In this document: positions 851 through 6,772 of the stretch, in pieces | Numbering within the stretch: the first letter of the stretch is position 1 | How the letters are laid out: each line of letters starts with the position of its first letter | Assembly (NCBI GenBank): GCA_023263995.1 | Contig: JALQTQ010000006.1 | Coordinates: 1-39,974 of the forward strand | Length of the DNA: 39,974 nt | DNA from: Akkermansiaceae bacterium | GTDB taxonomy: Bacteria; Verrucomicrobiota; Verrucomicrobiia; Verrucomicrobiales; Akkermansiaceae | Direction of reading: 5' to 3' | Program-made: the position numbers and the translations under genes | Notes under the pieces: generated by a model | Told to the model about the DNA's origin: nothing | What the model saw: the letters and a program-made list of their open reading frames with translations, nothing else | Database searches by the model: none

Positions 851-1441
851 TCAGTATTTGATCCGCTGCATCGGTAGTTTGTCGCCTTCGAAGGGGACGA
901 TTTCACGGATGGTCACCACGCCGCTGCCGGACGACGGGCTCCCGAGCGAGTCGAGCGAGGCCACGACGCGTGCACTGTTGGCCTGGAAGGCATTGGGCCC
1001 ACCGCTGTGGTTGATCTCCTGCCAGATGGAGATGATCGTGTGACCGTTGCTCGGCTTGTAGAAGAGGCTCAGGTCATCCCCTTTGTGGAAGAAGATGAAC
1101 TTCACGTTGGTGATCGCGCCGATGTTGGCCCAGGCCGATTGCGAGGCGGTGCCTCCCTTGCGGAGTTCAATGATTCGGGCTTCGATGTTGGAGCCATTCT
1201 TCCGGACTTCGAAGCCCGCGTAGTGGGTGTCTTTGATCGTGCTGTTGGTGCCGAAGAAGGCGCTGAAGACCTGCTCGGTGGACAGGGTCACCGGGTCGAG
1301 ATCAAGGAACAGGCCCCGGTATCGCTCGGTTGCAAAGGAGATGGTGTTGCCAGAGTCGAGTAGCGGCCACTCGAACTGGAGGGCGGCCTGGCTGCCGTTG
1401 GTCGAATCAGCAAATCGTCTTACTTGTTCCGTTTGAGACAT
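851..1441 (-). CDS. Unrecognised 196-aa protein
   Basis: The protein is soluble-looking, rich in beta-prone and polar residues, with no signal peptide or transmembrane helix. It begins MSQTEQVRRFADSTNGS from an ATG at 1441 preceded by a weak GGCGAG element. The composition (many Ser/Thr/Asn/Gly and alternating hydrophobics, for example VKFIFFHKGDDLSLFYK) suggests a beta-sandwich or structural protein. It is followed directly by a small membrane protein. A phage-derived or contractile-particle cassette is one possible reading of the pair, but nothing in the sequence proves it. No family is recognised. Confidence 0.5.
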   Translation of the reverse strand: MSQTEQVRRFADSTNGSQAALQFEWPLLDSGNTISFATERYRGLFLDLDPVTLSTEQVFSAFFGTNSTIKDTHYAGFEVRKNGSNIEARIIELRKGGTASQSAWANIGAITNVKFIFFHKGDDLSLFYKPSNGHTIISIWQEINHSGGPNAFQANSARVVASLDSLGSPSSGSGVVTIREIVPFEGDKLPMQRIKY

Positions 1442-1492
1442 CGTCTCGCCATGTCGGAGGTGGCTCGTCTATCTTCTTCGTGAACCGCTAGG

Positions 1493-1526
1493 GCGTCCTT
1501 CCGAGGTGGCCACCTCGGAAAGACGC
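1493..1526. repeat. 34-bp near-perfect palindrome
   Basis: Two 17-bp arms meet without a spacer. The core 1501-1518 (ccgaggtggccacctcgg) is a perfect 18-bp palindrome, and the outer bases 1493-1500 and 1519-1526 pair except for one mismatch. It lies between the start of the minus-strand gene at 1441 and the structured region upstream of the IS110 transposase. No T-run follows on either strand, so it is not a typical terminator. It could be an operator, a REP-like target site of the IS, or part of the IS left end. Confidence 0.75.
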
Positions 1527-1718
1527 AAGAGAGGTCAGACCGTAAATCGTCTCGTGAAATTTCCCTTCACGTTGCCAGCTTGGTCGGCCTCTCTTTTCGC
1601 ATTCAGATCTCGAACAGTTGATTGTGCCAAGATCCATTTCCATGAATCTTCGAGCCCGAAATCGTAAAACCGAGAATGAGGCATCCTCTGTGGTTTTCAA
1701 ACCCATAACTTCACAAAA
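1527..1718 (+). ncRNA. Candidate IS110 bridge RNA region
   Basis: The transposase 5' flank holds nested inverted repeats. The outer stem pairs 1528-1534 (agagagg) with 1588-1594 (cctctct) and continues with 1538-1541 (gacc) against 1582-1585 (ggtc). Inside it, cgtgaa (1553-1558) and ttcacg (1566-1571) form a perfect 6-bp hairpin with a 7-nt loop. IS110 recombinases are known to use a bridge RNA transcribed from the non-coding end next to the transposase, with internal loops that read target and donor DNA. Location and folding fit; the guide pairings with the flanks were not worked out, and the extent given is the whole upstream flank, not a mapped transcript. Confidence 0.5.
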
Positions 1719-2675
1719 ATGATTCCTCACAATTCGACCAATTGGGTCGGCATCGACGTCTCAAAGAGACAACTCGACCTCGCCTCATTACTCCCAATCA
1801 CAAAGCTTCCCAAGACTTTGCCAAACACCCCTCAAGGGCATCAGAAGCTACTCAGAATCCTTTCCTCTCAACCGGACTCAAAGGTCATTCTTGAATCGAC
1901 TGGTGGCTATGAACAGGGGCTTCTCCAGGCTCTCAGTGATCAAGGTATCCACGCTTCTCGGATCAATCCACTTCATGCCCGTTCCTTTGCCAGAGCGACG
2001 GGATTGCTTGCAAAAACGGACCAACTTGACGCCCAGATTCTCGTCCAATATGGCGCGGCTCTTCAACCAGCGGCAACGGCTCCACTCGACCCAGAACGCC
2101 AACAACTTCAAGACCTCTTAAAGTATCGTCAGCATCTTTACGATCAGCTTCATCGTGAAAAAATGCAGCTTGAACATGAGCACGGCAAAACGGTGATACG
2201 CATGATCAAAACTCGCATCAAGAGCCTTGAAAAACAAATCACCCAGCTCGCCCAAGAAGCCGAGGAGATGGCAAGAAACGCACCTACCCTTGCCCCCCTC
2301 CTAGAGATCCTGACAGGGGTGAAAGGGGTGGCCGCCTTAACTGCTCTTTCCCTTTTAGCTGCCATGCCGGAACTGGGACATCTGACTCGCAAGCAAGTGG
2401 CCGCCCTTGCTGGGGTTGCTCCCATGAACTACGACAGCGGAACGATGCGAGGGCAGCGTCGGGTCAAAGGAGGTCGTCGAGAGGTCCGCAAGGCGCTCTA
2501 CATGGCAAGTCTCAGCGCCGCACGCCATGAACCCACCCTGAAAGATTTTTACGAGACTCTCAAGAAAAATGGGAAACCAACCAAGGTTGCATTGACTGCG
2601 GTCATGCGAAAACTCCTCATTCATCTTAATGCATTGATTAGAAGGCATTTTCAGGAATCTCAGCAAGTTTCTTAA
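1719..2675 (+). CDS. IS110-family transposase (DEDD recombinase)
   Basis: A 318-residue protein with both halves of an IS110 recombinase. The N-terminal RuvC-like DEDD domain shows Asp13 (GIDVSK), Glu59 (ESTGGYE), and Asp101/Asp104 (KTDQLDA). A coiled helical linker follows (about 125-190). The C-terminal Transposase_20 domain contains a helix-hairpin-helix-like LTGVKGVAALTALSLLA and GVAPMNYDSG with the expected catalytic Ser240, then a basic GQRRVKGGRREVRKALYMAS segment. Length and motif order are typical and no frameshift is seen, so the enzyme is probably active. It starts at ATG 1719, directly after the structured 5' region. Codon use is visibly less GC-rich than neighbouring genes. Confidence 0.95.
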   Translation: MIPHNSTNWVGIDVSKRQLDLASLLPITKLPKTLPNTPQGHQKLLRILSSQPDSKVILESTGGYEQGLLQALSDQGIHASRINPLHARSFARATGLLAKTDQLDAQILVQYGAALQPAATAPLDPERQQLQDLLKYRQHLYDQLHREKMQLEHEHGKTVIRMIKTRIKSLEKQITQLAQEAEEMARNAPTLAPLLEILTGVKGVAALTALSLLAAMPELGHLTRKQVAALAGVAPMNYDSGTMRGQRRVKGGRREVRKALYMASLSAARHEPTLKDFYETLKKNGKPTKVALTAVMRKLLIHLNALIRRHFQESQQVS

Positions 2676-2692
2676 AAAAATCAAAAACACAG

Positions 2693-2737
2693 TTGCTGGC
2701 ATTATGTTTGCTGGGCATTATGTTTGTTATGTTTGGG
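2693..2737 (+). repeat. Short tandem direct repeats at IS right side
   Basis: The sequence ttgctggcattatgtttg (2693-2710) is repeated with one inserted G at 2708-2726, and a third partial copy (ttatgtttggg) follows at 2728-2738. The unit is about 15-16 bp around cattatgtttg. It lies in the 3' flank of the transposase gene just before the duplicated gene fragment, so it may mark the right end of the IS or a slippage scar at its junction. Confidence 0.7.
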
Positions 2738-2742
2738 TTGGG

Positions 2743-2849
2743 ATCTCGAGGAAAGGAAAGTCCTCATCTTCCTGTGCCGGAAAAGCCAGCTTGACCATGT
2801 GGGCACTTTGCCGGGCGGACCAGCGGTTGACGGCCTGACTGCTTGGTTC
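2743..2849 (-). pseudogene. 107-bp duplicated fragment of the large exported-protein gene
   Basis: These bases match 5654-5760 almost exactly: about 103 of 107 positions are the same without gaps, and the match stops abruptly at both ends. On the minus strand it encodes the peptide QAVNRWSARQSAHMVKLAFP and its neighbours, as found in the middle of the large exported protein at 3775-6570. Here it has no start, no continuing reading frame and no partner sequence on either side, so it is a gene scrap. It sits between the IS110 element and the end of the minus-strand operon. It could be the remnant of a former paralogue or a copy left by a rearrangement at the IS. Confidence 0.85.
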
Positions 2850-2887: not shown

Positions 2888-3778
2888 TCATCTCGGTTTA
2901 CGAAGCTTCCAGTATCCTGCGGCCAAGAGCACCAGCCCAAGGGTCACCACCAGCCAAAACATCCCGTGCTGACGATCACTTCCAGAATCGGCGAGCGGTT
3001 CTACCGGAGCTTCCCCGCGTTCCTTCGGTCGGGATGCCTGATTCTGTCTCCTTGCCTTGCTCTCAATCTCCGCCCGGAGCTTTTGAAATTTCGGAAGGAG
3101 ATTCCCCTCGTTGTCATACGAAGAGACGAGGTAGGTGAACTTCTGCACTTCGGGGTCATACCCACGGTGCGGGCCGGGAATGGGCAGATGCTGCCACTTG
3201 GGAGGAAGTTGGATCGAGTAGGTGCCCCCCCATTCATTGTAACGGCGCAAACCCTGACCTCTTTTGTATTCCTGTGAGAAATGGACAAAAATCTGGATTT
3301 GTCCGAGAACCGCTTTCCCATTCAAGCTGACTTTGAGATCCCGGTCTGAGAATTGAACAGAGGCTCCTGCATGATCCCAATCCGGCATCCCGGGCTCTTT
3401 CTCGGGCCTGCCGATGACACCTTCTTTGCGGGAAGTCTTCAACACCACGCCAAGATCAACTGCCATCTGATTCAGACGATCGAGAGCTTCCGGCGGATAC
3501 GGGCTTTCTTCGTAGGAGATCGTGCCATGAAGGAGCTTTCCATCCGGCGAACAGGTCATGGTCAACTCGCCGCGTTCAAAAAAGAGACTGCGATTGGTTC
3601 CCTCAAAACGAACGCGCGTGGCATAAAGATAGATTTTGATTCCGCTTCCCATGTGCCCGGAAGGATAAAACCCCTGTTCGTAAAGGTCCTCCACCCGAGG
3701 CTCGACTTTTAGGAGGAGTTCGCGCGTCGAGGCTTCCAGCGAGAGCATCAGGGATAAAAAAATCAGAGCAGCTTTCAT
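2888..3778 (-). CDS. Exported protein with C-terminal membrane anchor
   Basis: A 296-residue protein of unrecognised family. It starts with a short signal peptide (MKAALIFLSLMLSLEAS) and ends with a transmembrane helix (about 273-290, MFWLVVTLGLVLLAAGYW) followed by a basic tail (KLRKPR). The body should therefore be extracytoplasmic with the C-terminus inside. The stretch before the anchor (about 240-272) is polar and charged, a likely linker. The body is mixed alpha/beta without obvious catalytic motifs. Its ATG overlaps the stop of the upstream gene in an ATGA (3775-3778), so it is translationally coupled to the large exported protein and probably works with it. It is the last gene of the minus-strand operon. 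Confidence 0.8.
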   Translation of the reverse strand: MKAALIFLSLMLSLEASTRELLLKVEPRVEDLYEQGFYPSGHMGSGIKIYLYATRVRFEGTNRSLFFERGELTMTCSPDGKLLHGTISYEESPYPPEALDRLNQMAVDLGVVLKTSRKEGVIGRPEKEPGMPDWDHAGASVQFSDRDLKVSLNGKAVLGQIQIFVHFSQEYKRGQGLRRYNEWGGTYSIQLPPKWQHLPIPGPHRGYDPEVQKFTYLVSSYDNEGNLLPKFQKLRAEIESKARRQNQASRPKERGEAPVEPLADSGSDRQHGMFWLVVTLGLVLLAAGYWKLRKPR

Positions 3779-6570
3779 TGTTTTCGGGGAGCTTCGAGGT
3801 GATCGGCCACCTTGATGGGAGCACCAAGAATGGGGAGGATTCTGGAGAACTCTTTCCCTCGTTCAGCCAAAAGGGGCATCACGGTCGTCTGCTTAAAATC
3901 GTCCGACTTGAGGCTCCAAGCTTTGATCACCCCATCGGATTGATAGAGTGCGTTGGGTAGGCCAGACTCGACCCACTCCCATCGTCGGCCTTGACTTCCG
4001 ATGTTCTCGGTGCCCCCGTGAATCGCAGTGAATCGAACGCATCCGTCGAATGGCGATGGGGAAAGCGGTCCCGTCGCCCCAAGGAGAAGTCCGTTATGAA
4101 CGTTCCCCATTTTAACGTAGGCAGGCTGAATTACCCTATTCTGTTCCTGATTAGCGATTTTCCTTCCCGACTCAATCAGGAGCAGATTGACACTCTGCAA
4201 GGAGTCTCCGTTCAGAAGGCGGGCACTTGCTTCAGCGATAATCTCCCAGGCAGAAAGAACATCTTCTTTGAGATTTTCCTGATCTCCGTTATCGTTTCGG
4301 TAGACGTAATCAATCGCATGAAACCCGCTTCTCAAGAATGCCTCATGCTGCCAGGCCAAATCAGCAAAGATCAAATAGCCTCCATGAAAAAGAGCGTATT
4401 GAAACTGCTGTAATCCATCGGCCGTTAAAGCTGATAACCCTGACTGCGTTCCGACGATATCAGCTGCAAACGAGAAATCCTCAATCCCATACTGGAGATC
4501 GCTCAAGCCCGCAATCACCTGACAACCCACAGTCCTTGCCAACCCAGCCCAATCCAACGCCCGATCGGTATCCCAACACTGTCGGTAGTAGTCGTAATAC
4601 TCAGACATGGTTTCGATATTGTCGGTGTAGGAGAATCCACCTCCGAGATAATTTCCCACATTAATCTCATTGGATCCATACGGGACCAGCTCAGCCGGTT
4701 GACCAGGAGTGAGCTGGACCTGGTGATAGCCCAGCGGATCATCGTGGGTTTGTAAGCGGATCAAATACCGCAAGTCCATTTGCCATTGCAGCTTCGTCTG
4801 CTGTGTTGCGACCAGAAACGTCTGCTCATACGCCACATCGATGGTCCCTTTCTTCAATCGCCATTCCAGGGTGATTTTCCCCGGCCGCACGCCTTCCATC
4901 CAGAACTGGGCATTGTCGGGAATTTGCGAGGCTGAGCCATAGACGCTTTCACTTGGTTTCTTGTTGATGCCGCGAGTGACCAGATTGACGGGATCAAGGG
5001 TTTCGAAGTCATAGGGCTCGATCCCGTAGTAGTCGCCAAACTTTTCGTCCCCCCACTTGGCATAAAAGCGGACCTGCCCGCTCTCCGGGCGTCCGATGTC
5101 CGGGTCGAGGCGGTCGAGCTTTCTGATCGTGACCTCGGCTCCGTCCCAGAAGTGATCGGGCATGGCGGTGGGATGGATGCCAAACCATCCCGGATAGAGG
5201 TCGTCGGTGACGCGTTCGTCGTCGAGATAAAGGCCATCAAGATGGTCGCGTTCGGTATCGAGCCGGAGTTCTGAATTGCCCGATCCGGTTTTGCGATCCA
5301 CGTCCGGAATGTCGTCGCAATCGGGAATGGCGTAGCCGGTGGTCGGGTCGATGCGCCCTTCATCAAAATCAGAGTTCACCGCCAGCACTTCCGGAGCCTT
5401 CAGGACCGGGATGAGTCGCCGCAGGGTGGTGCGATAGTTGCCTGCGGGGACCAGCTCAACATCCGGTCGCACTTCGAGGGTGTTGGAACTGCGCTGCCCG
5501 GCCGGGACGGTCATGGTGCGGAGGGTGACCCCCGCTTCCTCCACCCCACTCCCGGTGATGCCGAAGAGCCGGATCTCGTAGTCGCGGTCACTTTCACCGT
5601 CGAGTCGGGGAAGCTGATAAGCGGTCAGGGTCTCCTGCACCGAATAGGTCGGAATCTCGAGGAAAGGAAAGTCCTCATCTTTCTCTGCCGGAAAAGCCAG
5701 CTTGACCATGTGGGCACTTTGCCGGGCCGACCAGCGGTTGACGGCCTGACCGCTTGGTTCGGGATCGACCTGGGCATGGGTCATCCCGAGGCTGATCGAC
5801 TGTTTCCAGTTCTTGAGGCGATCGGTGAAGGAGAATTTCCGGCTCAACCCTTCCCCATCGAGTGGAAACTCAAAGGAGGCATTTGCCTGTCGGAAGTCTG
5901 CCAAGGGGACTGGTTGCAGGATGGGTCCGCCAAGGGTCGGCTGGCTCCAGAATTGTTGGGTCCAGGTCCCCGGAATCGGAGCTCCCTGCGCCTGCATCAC
6001 TTCGCTGAACAGATAAACCGACTCGTAGACCTGAGTGAGCAAGAGGGGTCCAGCCTGGGCAATCTCATCCGATCCCGGCTGATCGGCGGTGTTGGGATCG
6101 AGGCCCAGGGTCGTTTCATCGAGATCGATGATGCCATCGCCGTCGAGGTCCACGAGGTATTTCACGTCTTCCTCATAGACCAGCGGATCACTCCCAAGGA
6201 CACAAACTTCGTAATCATCGGAAGCCCCGTCGCCATCAGCATCGCCCACGGGAGCATTGGCCATCCACCGGATGCGGAGATACATCGCGGTCGCTGAATC
6301 ATCGCAGTCATACCAGAACGGGACCAGTTGATCCTGGCCCCGGTGGGAGAAGTCGAGGTATTCCCAGTGCGTCAGGTCGGTGGAGAACTGGACGAAGTAG
6401 GCCGCATCGAGTTCCCCGTACCAAGTGAGGTCAAAGCCGCTGGGATCGTCGGGAACGAGGATGGGATTGCTGTGATGGGGGCCGCTGGCCTGCCCGGATC
6501 CCGGTGACGCGGTCAGGAAAAGACCCAGAAGCCAACCGGCCCGGCCTGATTTGTGAAATGGTGCACGCAT
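3775..6570 (-). CDS. Large exported protein with calcium-binding DxDGDG loops
   Basis: The ATG at 6570 gives 931 residues and places a signal peptide at the N-terminus (MRAPFHKSGRAGWLLGLFLT...). An upstream in-frame start at 6633 would add 21 polar residues and bury the signal. The chosen start lies 4 bp after the stop of the preceding short frame, with an AAGG close by. Early in the protein is a Y-F-V-Q-F-S-T-D-L-T-H-W motif common in exported Verrucomicrobia proteins. Two thrombospondin-type-3-like calcium loops follow, DADGDGASDD (from residue 110) and DLDGDGIIDLDE (from 141). The remaining 750 residues are not recognised; the acidic, aromatic-rich composition suggests beta domains. A segment encoded by 5654-5760 is duplicated as a scrap at 2743-2849. 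The protein is probably secreted or on the cell surface. Confidence 0.8.
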   Translation of the reverse strand: MRAPFHKSGRAGWLLGLFLTASPGSGQASGPHHSNPILVPDDPSGFDLTWYGELDAAYFVQFSTDLTHWEYLDFSHRGQDQLVPFWYDCDDSATAMYLRIRWMANAPVGDADGDGASDDYEVCVLGSDPLVYEEDVKYLVDLDGDGIIDLDETTLGLDPNTADQPGSDEIAQAGPLLLTQVYESVYLFSEVMQAQGAPIPGTWTQQFWSQPTLGGPILQPVPLADFRQANASFEFPLDGEGLSRKFSFTDRLKNWKQSISLGMTHAQVDPEPSGQAVNRWSARQSAHMVKLAFPAEKDEDFPFLEIPTYSVQETLTAYQLPRLDGESDRDYEIRLFGITGSGVEEAGVTLRTMTVPAGQRSSNTLEVRPDVELVPAGNYRTTLRRLIPVLKAPEVLAVNSDFDEGRIDPTTGYAIPDCDDIPDVDRKTGSGNSELRLDTERDHLDGLYLDDERVTDDLYPGWFGIHPTAMPDHFWDGAEVTIRKLDRLDPDIGRPESGQVRFYAKWGDEKFGDYYGIEPYDFETLDPVNLVTRGINKKPSESVYGSASQIPDNAQFWMEGVRPGKITLEWRLKKGTIDVAYEQTFLVATQQTKLQWQMDLRYLIRLQTHDDPLGYHQVQLTPGQPAELVPYGSNEINVGNYLGGGFSYTDNIETMSEYYDYYRQCWDTDRALDWAGLARTVGCQVIAGLSDLQYGIEDFSFAADIVGTQSGLSALTADGLQQFQYALFHGGYLIFADLAWQHEAFLRSGFHAIDYVYRNDNGDQENLKEDVLSAWEIIAEASARLLNGDSLQSVNLLLIESGRKIANQEQNRVIQPAYVKMGNVHNGLLLGATGPLSPSPFDGCVRFTAIHGGTENIGSQGRRWEWVESGLPNALYQSDGVIKAWSLKSDDFKQTTVMPLLAERGKEFSRILPILGAPIKVADHLEAPRKQ

Positions 6571-6574
6571 GACC

Positions 6575-6772
6575 TTAGCGGTTGGAGTTGGCGGCTCTTT
6601 CTCCCGCTTCGACGGGCTGGGGCTTGATGCCATAACGAATCACCAGGTCCTTCGGCTGGCGCTTTTCGGCCTCCAGCCGGGCCTGCCGGGCTTGGTCAAC
6701 CCGCTTTCGCTCCTCCCGATGGAATCTCAACTCGGCCTGATGCGAAGCGACATGGCGGTGGAGAGCCCGCAT
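6575..6772 (-). CDS. Short basic frame, likely 3' part of the interrupted upstream gene
   Basis: Read from ATG 6772 this is a 65-residue, highly charged, probably helical protein (HREERKRVDQARQARLEAEK). The frame is continuous with the upstream gene: only one TGA (6803-6805) separates them, and the 10 codons between that stop and this ATG are also open and proline-rich like the preceding sequence. The stop at 6575 lies 4 bp before the ATG of the large exported protein, as expected for a coupled operon gene. No ribosome binding site is evident before the ATG at 6772. So either this is the C-terminal tail of a gene broken by a nonsense mutation, or a small reinitiated cistron. Confidence 0.45.
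   Translation of the reverse strand: MRALHRHVASHQAELRFHREERKRVDQARQARLEAEKRQPKDLVIRYGIKPQPVEAGERAANSNR

What the first reader, a model, noticed from the sequence alone, without database searches (positions are those of the whole stretch)
1527..1718. Candidate bridge RNA upstream of the IS110 transposase
The transposase 5' flank folds into an outer stem (1528-1541 with 1582-1594) and a perfect inner hairpin (1553-1571). IS110-family recombinases are known to be guided by a bridge RNA from this position, and the long 5' versus short 3' flank fits the IS110 subgroup. If the loops match the flanks and the IS ends, this is a new programmable recombinase/RNA pair from Verrucomicrobiota.
Basis: partly seen in the sequence, partly recalled or inferred. 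Interest (0 to 1): 0.62.

Follow-up and report, generated by a model that had tools for sequence, protein, structure and literature searches.

The report
IS110 element with its bridge RNA
This is an ordinary-looking IS110 jumping gene that carries, just upstream of its recombinase, an RNA whose loops match both the DNA it jumped into and its own ends, so it is a new member of the known bridge-RNA-guided recombinases rather than a new kind of system.

Summary
The RNA runs ~1490 to ~1690 as three stem-loops: a 5' stem-loop (1493-1526), a target-binding loop (1527-1595) and a donor-binding loop (~1606-1678); fold z = -5.2. The element is 1419-2697 (1,279 bp) with CT cores at both ends, a 298-nt left end and a ~20-nt right end, as in the IS110 group. 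The left target guide matches the left flank 10/11 plus one G-U; the right target guide pairs with CTGGCA of the right flank; the left donor guide matches the right end (ACAGTTG). A covariance model of the donor loop, built only from 20 relatives, finds this site as its only significant hit in the 3.85-Mb host assembly. Across 15 elements, loops match their own flanks far better than each other's (0/20,000 permutations). Catalytic DEDD and Ser are present. Not shown: transcription, activity, an independent empty site, a junction promoter. Donor-guide pairing is imperfect at the first core base. It is a new member of a known kind.

The parts
1419..2697 (+). IS110-group insertion sequence, 1,279 bp counting a CT core at each end (1419-1420 and 2696-2697)
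   Evidence: right end by homology with relatives (ACAGTTG-CT); left end inferred from guide match and best of 20 CTs tested; no independent empty site found
1719..2675 (+). IS110 recombinase, 318 aa, DEDD RuvC-like domain plus Transposase_20 domain; intact frame
   Evidence: Pfam PF01548 1.8e-20 and PF02371 1.5e-18; PDB homologues ISCro4 4.6e-35 and IS621 2.3e-33, with the catalytic D, E, D, D and SG aligned
1493..1526 (+). 5' stem-loop of the bridge RNA (near-perfect palindrome GCGTCCTTCCGAGGTGGCCACCTCGGAAAGACGC)
   Evidence: fold; palindromes at the same place in several relatives, e.g. L031, L037, L047, L049, L054
   Evidence: fold
1542..1552 (+). left target guide GUAAAUCGUCU, matching left flank GCAAATCGTCT (1410-1420) 10/11 plus one G-U
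   Evidence: score 10.5/11, not reached by any of 2,306 other CT-ending 11-mers on the + strand at 3000-39900
1571..1578 (+). right target guide GUUGCCAG, pairing with CTGGCA(TT) at 2696-2703
   Evidence: 6 contiguous pairs; 31 nt 5' of the donor-loop anchor, the same offset (29-33 nt) as in relatives
1606..1678 (+). donor-binding stem-loop (DBL)
   Evidence: hit of covariance model R1 built from relatives only: 28.2 bits, E 4.9e-6 in the window and the only hit with E <= 0.001 in the genome
1614..1620 (+). left donor guide ACAGUUG, matching the element's right end ACAGTTG (2689-2695)
1664..1667 (+). right donor guide GUAA, pairing with TTAC (1420-1423) at the left end; weak on its own
   Evidence: position by alignment with relatives' ACAAG/CTTGT; not significant alone
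1410..1420 (+). left target half plus CT core, inside the interrupted minus-strand gene
   Evidence: sequence
2696..2703 (+). CT core plus right target half
   Evidence: sequence

Best explanation
1419-2697 is an IS110-group insertion sequence. Its left non-coding end encodes a bridge RNA (about 1490-1690) with a 5' stem-loop, a target-binding loop and a donor-binding loop. The RNA is expected to bind the 318-aa recombinase. The target loop would pair with GCAAATCGT-CT-GGCA at the insertion site (here the 5' end of a minus-strand gene), and the donor loop with the RE-LE junction ACAGTTG-CT-TAC of the excised circle. The recombinase would then join them at the CT core by a DEDD/serine mechanism, as in IS621. 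Shown here: sequence, structure, conservation, guide-flank matching and catalytic residues. Inferred from IS621: transcription, protein binding, and recombination.
For: Pfam and PDB homology to IS621 and ISCro4 recombinases. Three-stem-loop fold, z -5.2. Donor loop conserved in 20 relatives: 91% of cells paired, 6 of 8 pairs with double-sided changes, covariation 0.446 against at most 0.152 for slid controls. Held-out model finds the window at 28.2 bits against 14.2 for the next hit in the window, and is the only hit with E <= 0.001 in the host assembly. Target guides match own flanks better than swapped flanks in 15 elements, 0/20,000 permutations for left and right, and still 0/20,000 without the window. 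Donor left guide covaries with the right end, 0/20,000. Right guide at a constant 29-33 nt from the donor anchor in 12 of 15 elements as best site, window at 31.
Against: No transcript data. The window's left end rests largely on the guide match itself, because no second copy or empty site exists in the genus or order sampled. First core base of both donor guides is not complementary (LDG AU, RDG AA against core CT). Right-flank pairing is only 6 bp and the right donor guide 4 bp, neither strong alone. No convincing sigma-70 promoter at the RE-LE junction in this element.
Confidence: 0.93

Rival explanations
1. The element is a decayed IS110 copy: the bridge RNA is genuine by descent but no longer works (degenerate junction promoter, core mismatches in the donor loop).
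For: Both donor guides mismatch the first core base; best junction promoter 7 of 12, reached by 99% of shuffles; single copy in the assembly.
Against: Open 318-aa frame with catalytic residues aligned; target guide still matches the flank almost perfectly; several multi-copy relatives also fail the sigma-70 consensus scan; IS621 tolerates other first core bases (PMC11208158), and relatives' donor guides also vary at that base.
Confidence: 0.25
2. The structured 5' flank is a cis-acting leader that only regulates transposase expression, not a guide RNA.
For: It lies directly upstream of the ORF and includes strong hairpins; earlier work on IS110 elements proposed regulation by non-coding ends (PMC11208160).
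Against: A leader would not be expected to match the insertion-site flanks, which differ from element to element, nor to show a donor loop that covaries with the far end of the element.
Confidence: 0.04
3. The hairpins are a chance or host feature (terminator, REP-type palindrome) with no relation to the IS.
For: The palindrome 1493-1526 resembles a host repeat at first sight.
Against: The palindrome occurs once in the assembly (only its own reverse complement); it lies inside the element ends; fold z -5.2; held-out model hit.
Confidence: 0.02

Closest known systems
IS621 bridge RNA/recombinase (IS110 group, E. coli; PMC11208160, PMC11208158)
   Same: DEDD plus Tnp domains with catalytic Ser; long left end carrying a 5' stem-loop, then target loop, then donor loop; CT core; guide order left guide then right guide in each loop
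   Different: Recombinase only distantly related (phmmer 119 bits); different target; first core base not matched by the donor guides; no clear junction promoter
ISCro4 (IS110 group, PDB 9t56)
   Same: Closest solved recombinase by sequence (E 4.6e-35)
   Different: Its RNA and target were not compared here
ISEc21 seekRNA (IS110 family, PMC11187229)
   Same: Non-coding region upstream of the transposase; bottom-strand match precedes top-strand complement
   Different: Described there as a short processed target-guide RNA; RNA ends are unknown for this element
Multi-copy relatives found here (G040, G177, G282, G432; 35-37% protein identity)
   Same: Same donor-loop motif, CT cores, guide geometry
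   Different: Different targets; some have a longer 5' stem-loop with a conserved inner loop

Membership tests
[quoted passage not shown]
   both above the curated cut-offs
IS110-family recombinase | Catalytic D11/E60/D102/D105 and S241 of IS621 | tested here: met
   gidvsk, lestggye, ktdqlda and ydsgt align with IS621 gid, ieatgty, ktdtvda and yesg; residues named in PMC11208158
IS110 group (not IS1111) | Long left end, short right end, RNA upstream of the transposase | tested here: met
   LE 298 nt; right end about 20 nt between the stop codon and the CT core
IS110 group (not IS1111) | No long (7-17 bp) sub-terminal inverted repeats, which mark IS1111 | not tested
   no systematic search for sub-terminal repeats was made
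[quoted passage not shown]
   donor loop by held-out model
Bridge RNA | First loop complementary to both target strands, left guide then right guide, including the core | tested here: met
Bridge RNA | Second loop complementary to donor ends (LD and RD) | tested here: inconclusive
   left guide 7 nt met; right guide only 4 nt and first core base mismatched, so partly met for this element; met across relatives
Bridge RNA | sigma-70-like promoter reconstituted at the RE-LE junction | tested here: inconclusive
   no good match in this element; host promoter rules unknown
Bridge RNA | RNA expressed, bound by the recombinase and required for recombination | not testable with these tools
   needs RNA-seq and recombination assays
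Any curated Rfam family | match to a curated Rfam 15 family at its gathering score | tested here: not met
   only a tRNA in the whole window; two chance-level matches in the element

The most novel reading that the evidence does not exclude
The donor loop of this element reads a core other than CT at its first base (AT/TT-like), so the element may tolerate or prefer unlike cores in its target and donor loops; this would be a natural variant of the core-matching rule.
Probability: 0.08. Interest if true: 0.4.

Novelty: new member of a known kind. Interest (0 to 1): 0.3.

Why it matters
It adds one complete, naturally reprogrammed recombinase/bridge-RNA pair, with a predicted target and donor sequence that can be tested directly. 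The relatives found on the way (about 20 elements, several multi-copy) extend the usable diversity of compact bridge recombinases. It does not change the concept.

Tried and rejected
Rfam search, strict and permissive: no bridge RNA family matched. A second copy in the host assembly: none. Close relatives of the transposase in IMG/VR: none. Empty target site via the interrupted gene in the genus and 387 genomes of the order: the gene was found nowhere else. Junction promoter by consensus: not convincing. The idea that palindrome 1493-1526 is a host REP element that served as the target was rejected, because it is unique in the assembly and lies inside the element. First-pass end comparison of multi-copy relatives failed for minus-strand copies until the loci were oriented (corrected).

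Full report
Observation. The region 1527-1718 folds with the outer stem and the perfect inner hairpin at the positions given. Alone it is only moderately more stable than shuffles (z -2.8). With the palindrome just upstream the 203-nt stretch 1488-1690 forms three successive stem-loops, z -5.2, 0 of 200 shuffles as stable, and MFE and centroid structures agree.

The protein. ORF 1719-2675 (318 aa) matches DEDD_Tnp_IS110 and Transposase_20. The solved IS621 and ISCro4 recombinases are its relatives in the PDB, and the DEDD positions and the SG serine align. IS621 residues D11, E60, D102, D105 and S241 are the catalytic set (PMC11208158).

Relatives and ends. The genome searches gave about 20 usable relatives at 32-44% identity, several in multiple copies. 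Copies in one genome share sequence up to CT-bounded ends and diverge outside. Nearly all usable relatives share a right end of the type ACAGTTG-CT (or ACCGTTG-CT, ACCGCTG-CT, AGAGTTG-CT, TAGTTGA-CT) a short way past the stop codon, and most share a left end CT-TGTAT. In the window the right end is ACAGTTG-CT (2689-2697), fixed by this homology. The left end, GCAAATCGT-CT-TACTTG (1410-1426), is inferred: of 20 CT dinucleotides in 1200-1500, 1419 gives the best match to the target loop, 10.5 of 11, the next best being 8.5. None of 2,306 other CT-ending 11-mers on the + strand of the window (3000-39900) reached it. The element is then 1,279 bp with both CT copies counted, left end 298 nt. Removing it joins the flanks into one open frame that contains a start MPSKHNARRFADSTNG, which is consistent with insertion into the 5' end of a gene. 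No independent empty site was found.

Guides. Following the IS621 rule (PMC11208160; left guide has the sequence of the top strand, right guide is complementary to it, core included in both), the target loop reads GUAAAUCGUCU ... GUUGCCAG. This matches GCAAATCGT-CT (10 of 11 identical plus one G-U) and pairs with CT-GGCA. The donor loop reads ACAGUUG ... GUAA, matching ACAGTTG at the right end and pairing with TTAC at the left end. The first core base is not complementary in either donor guide. In IS621 the first core base is the less conserved one and other bases are tolerated (PMC11208158).

Is this more than chance? Among 15 non-redundant elements, own flanks match the loop region better than swapped flanks: left 0.87 against 0.71, right 0.88 against 0.73, 0 of 20,000 permutations for each. 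The result stands without the window (0 of 20,000), and with the core letters removed (0 and 4 of 20,000). The left donor guide covaries with the right end (0 of 20,000) and the right donor guide with the left end (5 of 20,000). The best right-target-guide site lies 29-33 nt before the donor-loop anchor in 12 of 15 elements, and at 31 nt in the window. For the window alone the right guide (P about 0.04) and the right donor guide (about 0.33) are weak. The left ends of several relatives were read by eye from the shared CT-TG start, so small errors in individual flanks are possible; they would be expected to weaken, not create, the signal.

Structure conservation. The donor loop of 20 relatives, the window left out, shows two helices with 91% of cells paired and double-sided changes at 6 of 8 pairs; slid controls pair 20-44% of cells, and RNAalifold predicts the same helices unprompted. 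A covariance model from these relatives finds window 1606-1678 at 28.2 bits, next hit in the window 14.2, and in the whole 3.85-Mb assembly only this place has E <= 0.001. It also finds further relatives not used in its making (L029 and L032). Rfam has no matching family.

Conclusion. It is an IS110-group element with its bridge RNA. The RNA extends further 5' than stated and ends before the transposase start. What remains inferred is transcription, binding and activity. The weak junction promoter and the donor core mismatch leave room for a decayed copy. The concept and mechanism are known from IS621 and from seekRNA work (PMC11187229), so this is a new member of a known kind.

Noticed in passing
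window 2736-2849 and 5647-5760: A 114-bp stretch just right of the element is 95% identical to part of the 952-aa minus-strand ORF (3775-6633): a duplicated gene fragment beside the insertion.
   Followed up: partly
window 2698-2730: Right flank holds imperfect repeats of GGCATTATGTTTG / GGGCATTATGTTTG / TTATGTTTG, so part of the target half-site is itself repeated.
   Followed up: no
window 1410-1441: The left end of the IS supplies an in-frame ATG (1441, minus strand) to the interrupted gene, so the gene may still be translated with a swapped N-terminus; the gene has no Pfam match and no relative in 387 genomes of the order.
   Followed up: partly
L038, L042, L045, L046, left ends: A subset of relatives has a long 5' stem-loop with a conserved inner sequence CCGAGAATGGGCC...GCTCGTCGGAGG in place of the simple palindrome; it looks like a sub-type of the bridge RNA 5' domain.
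   Followed up: no
L005, just left of the element (about 2170-2220): In the Ktedonobacterales relative the element follows directly on what looks like the 3' end of a tRNA gene, so its target may be a tRNA 3' end; no tRNA scan was run.
   Followed up: no
L043, upstream of the match: Part of the left end (CCCCCTCGTATCTTGCCAGTATGCTATTCTAG...) is present twice in tandem, and no usual right end was found.
   Followed up: no
L037, L040, L041, L050: Contigs end at or just beyond the element ends, as expected if repeated IS copies broke the assemblies.
   Followed up: no
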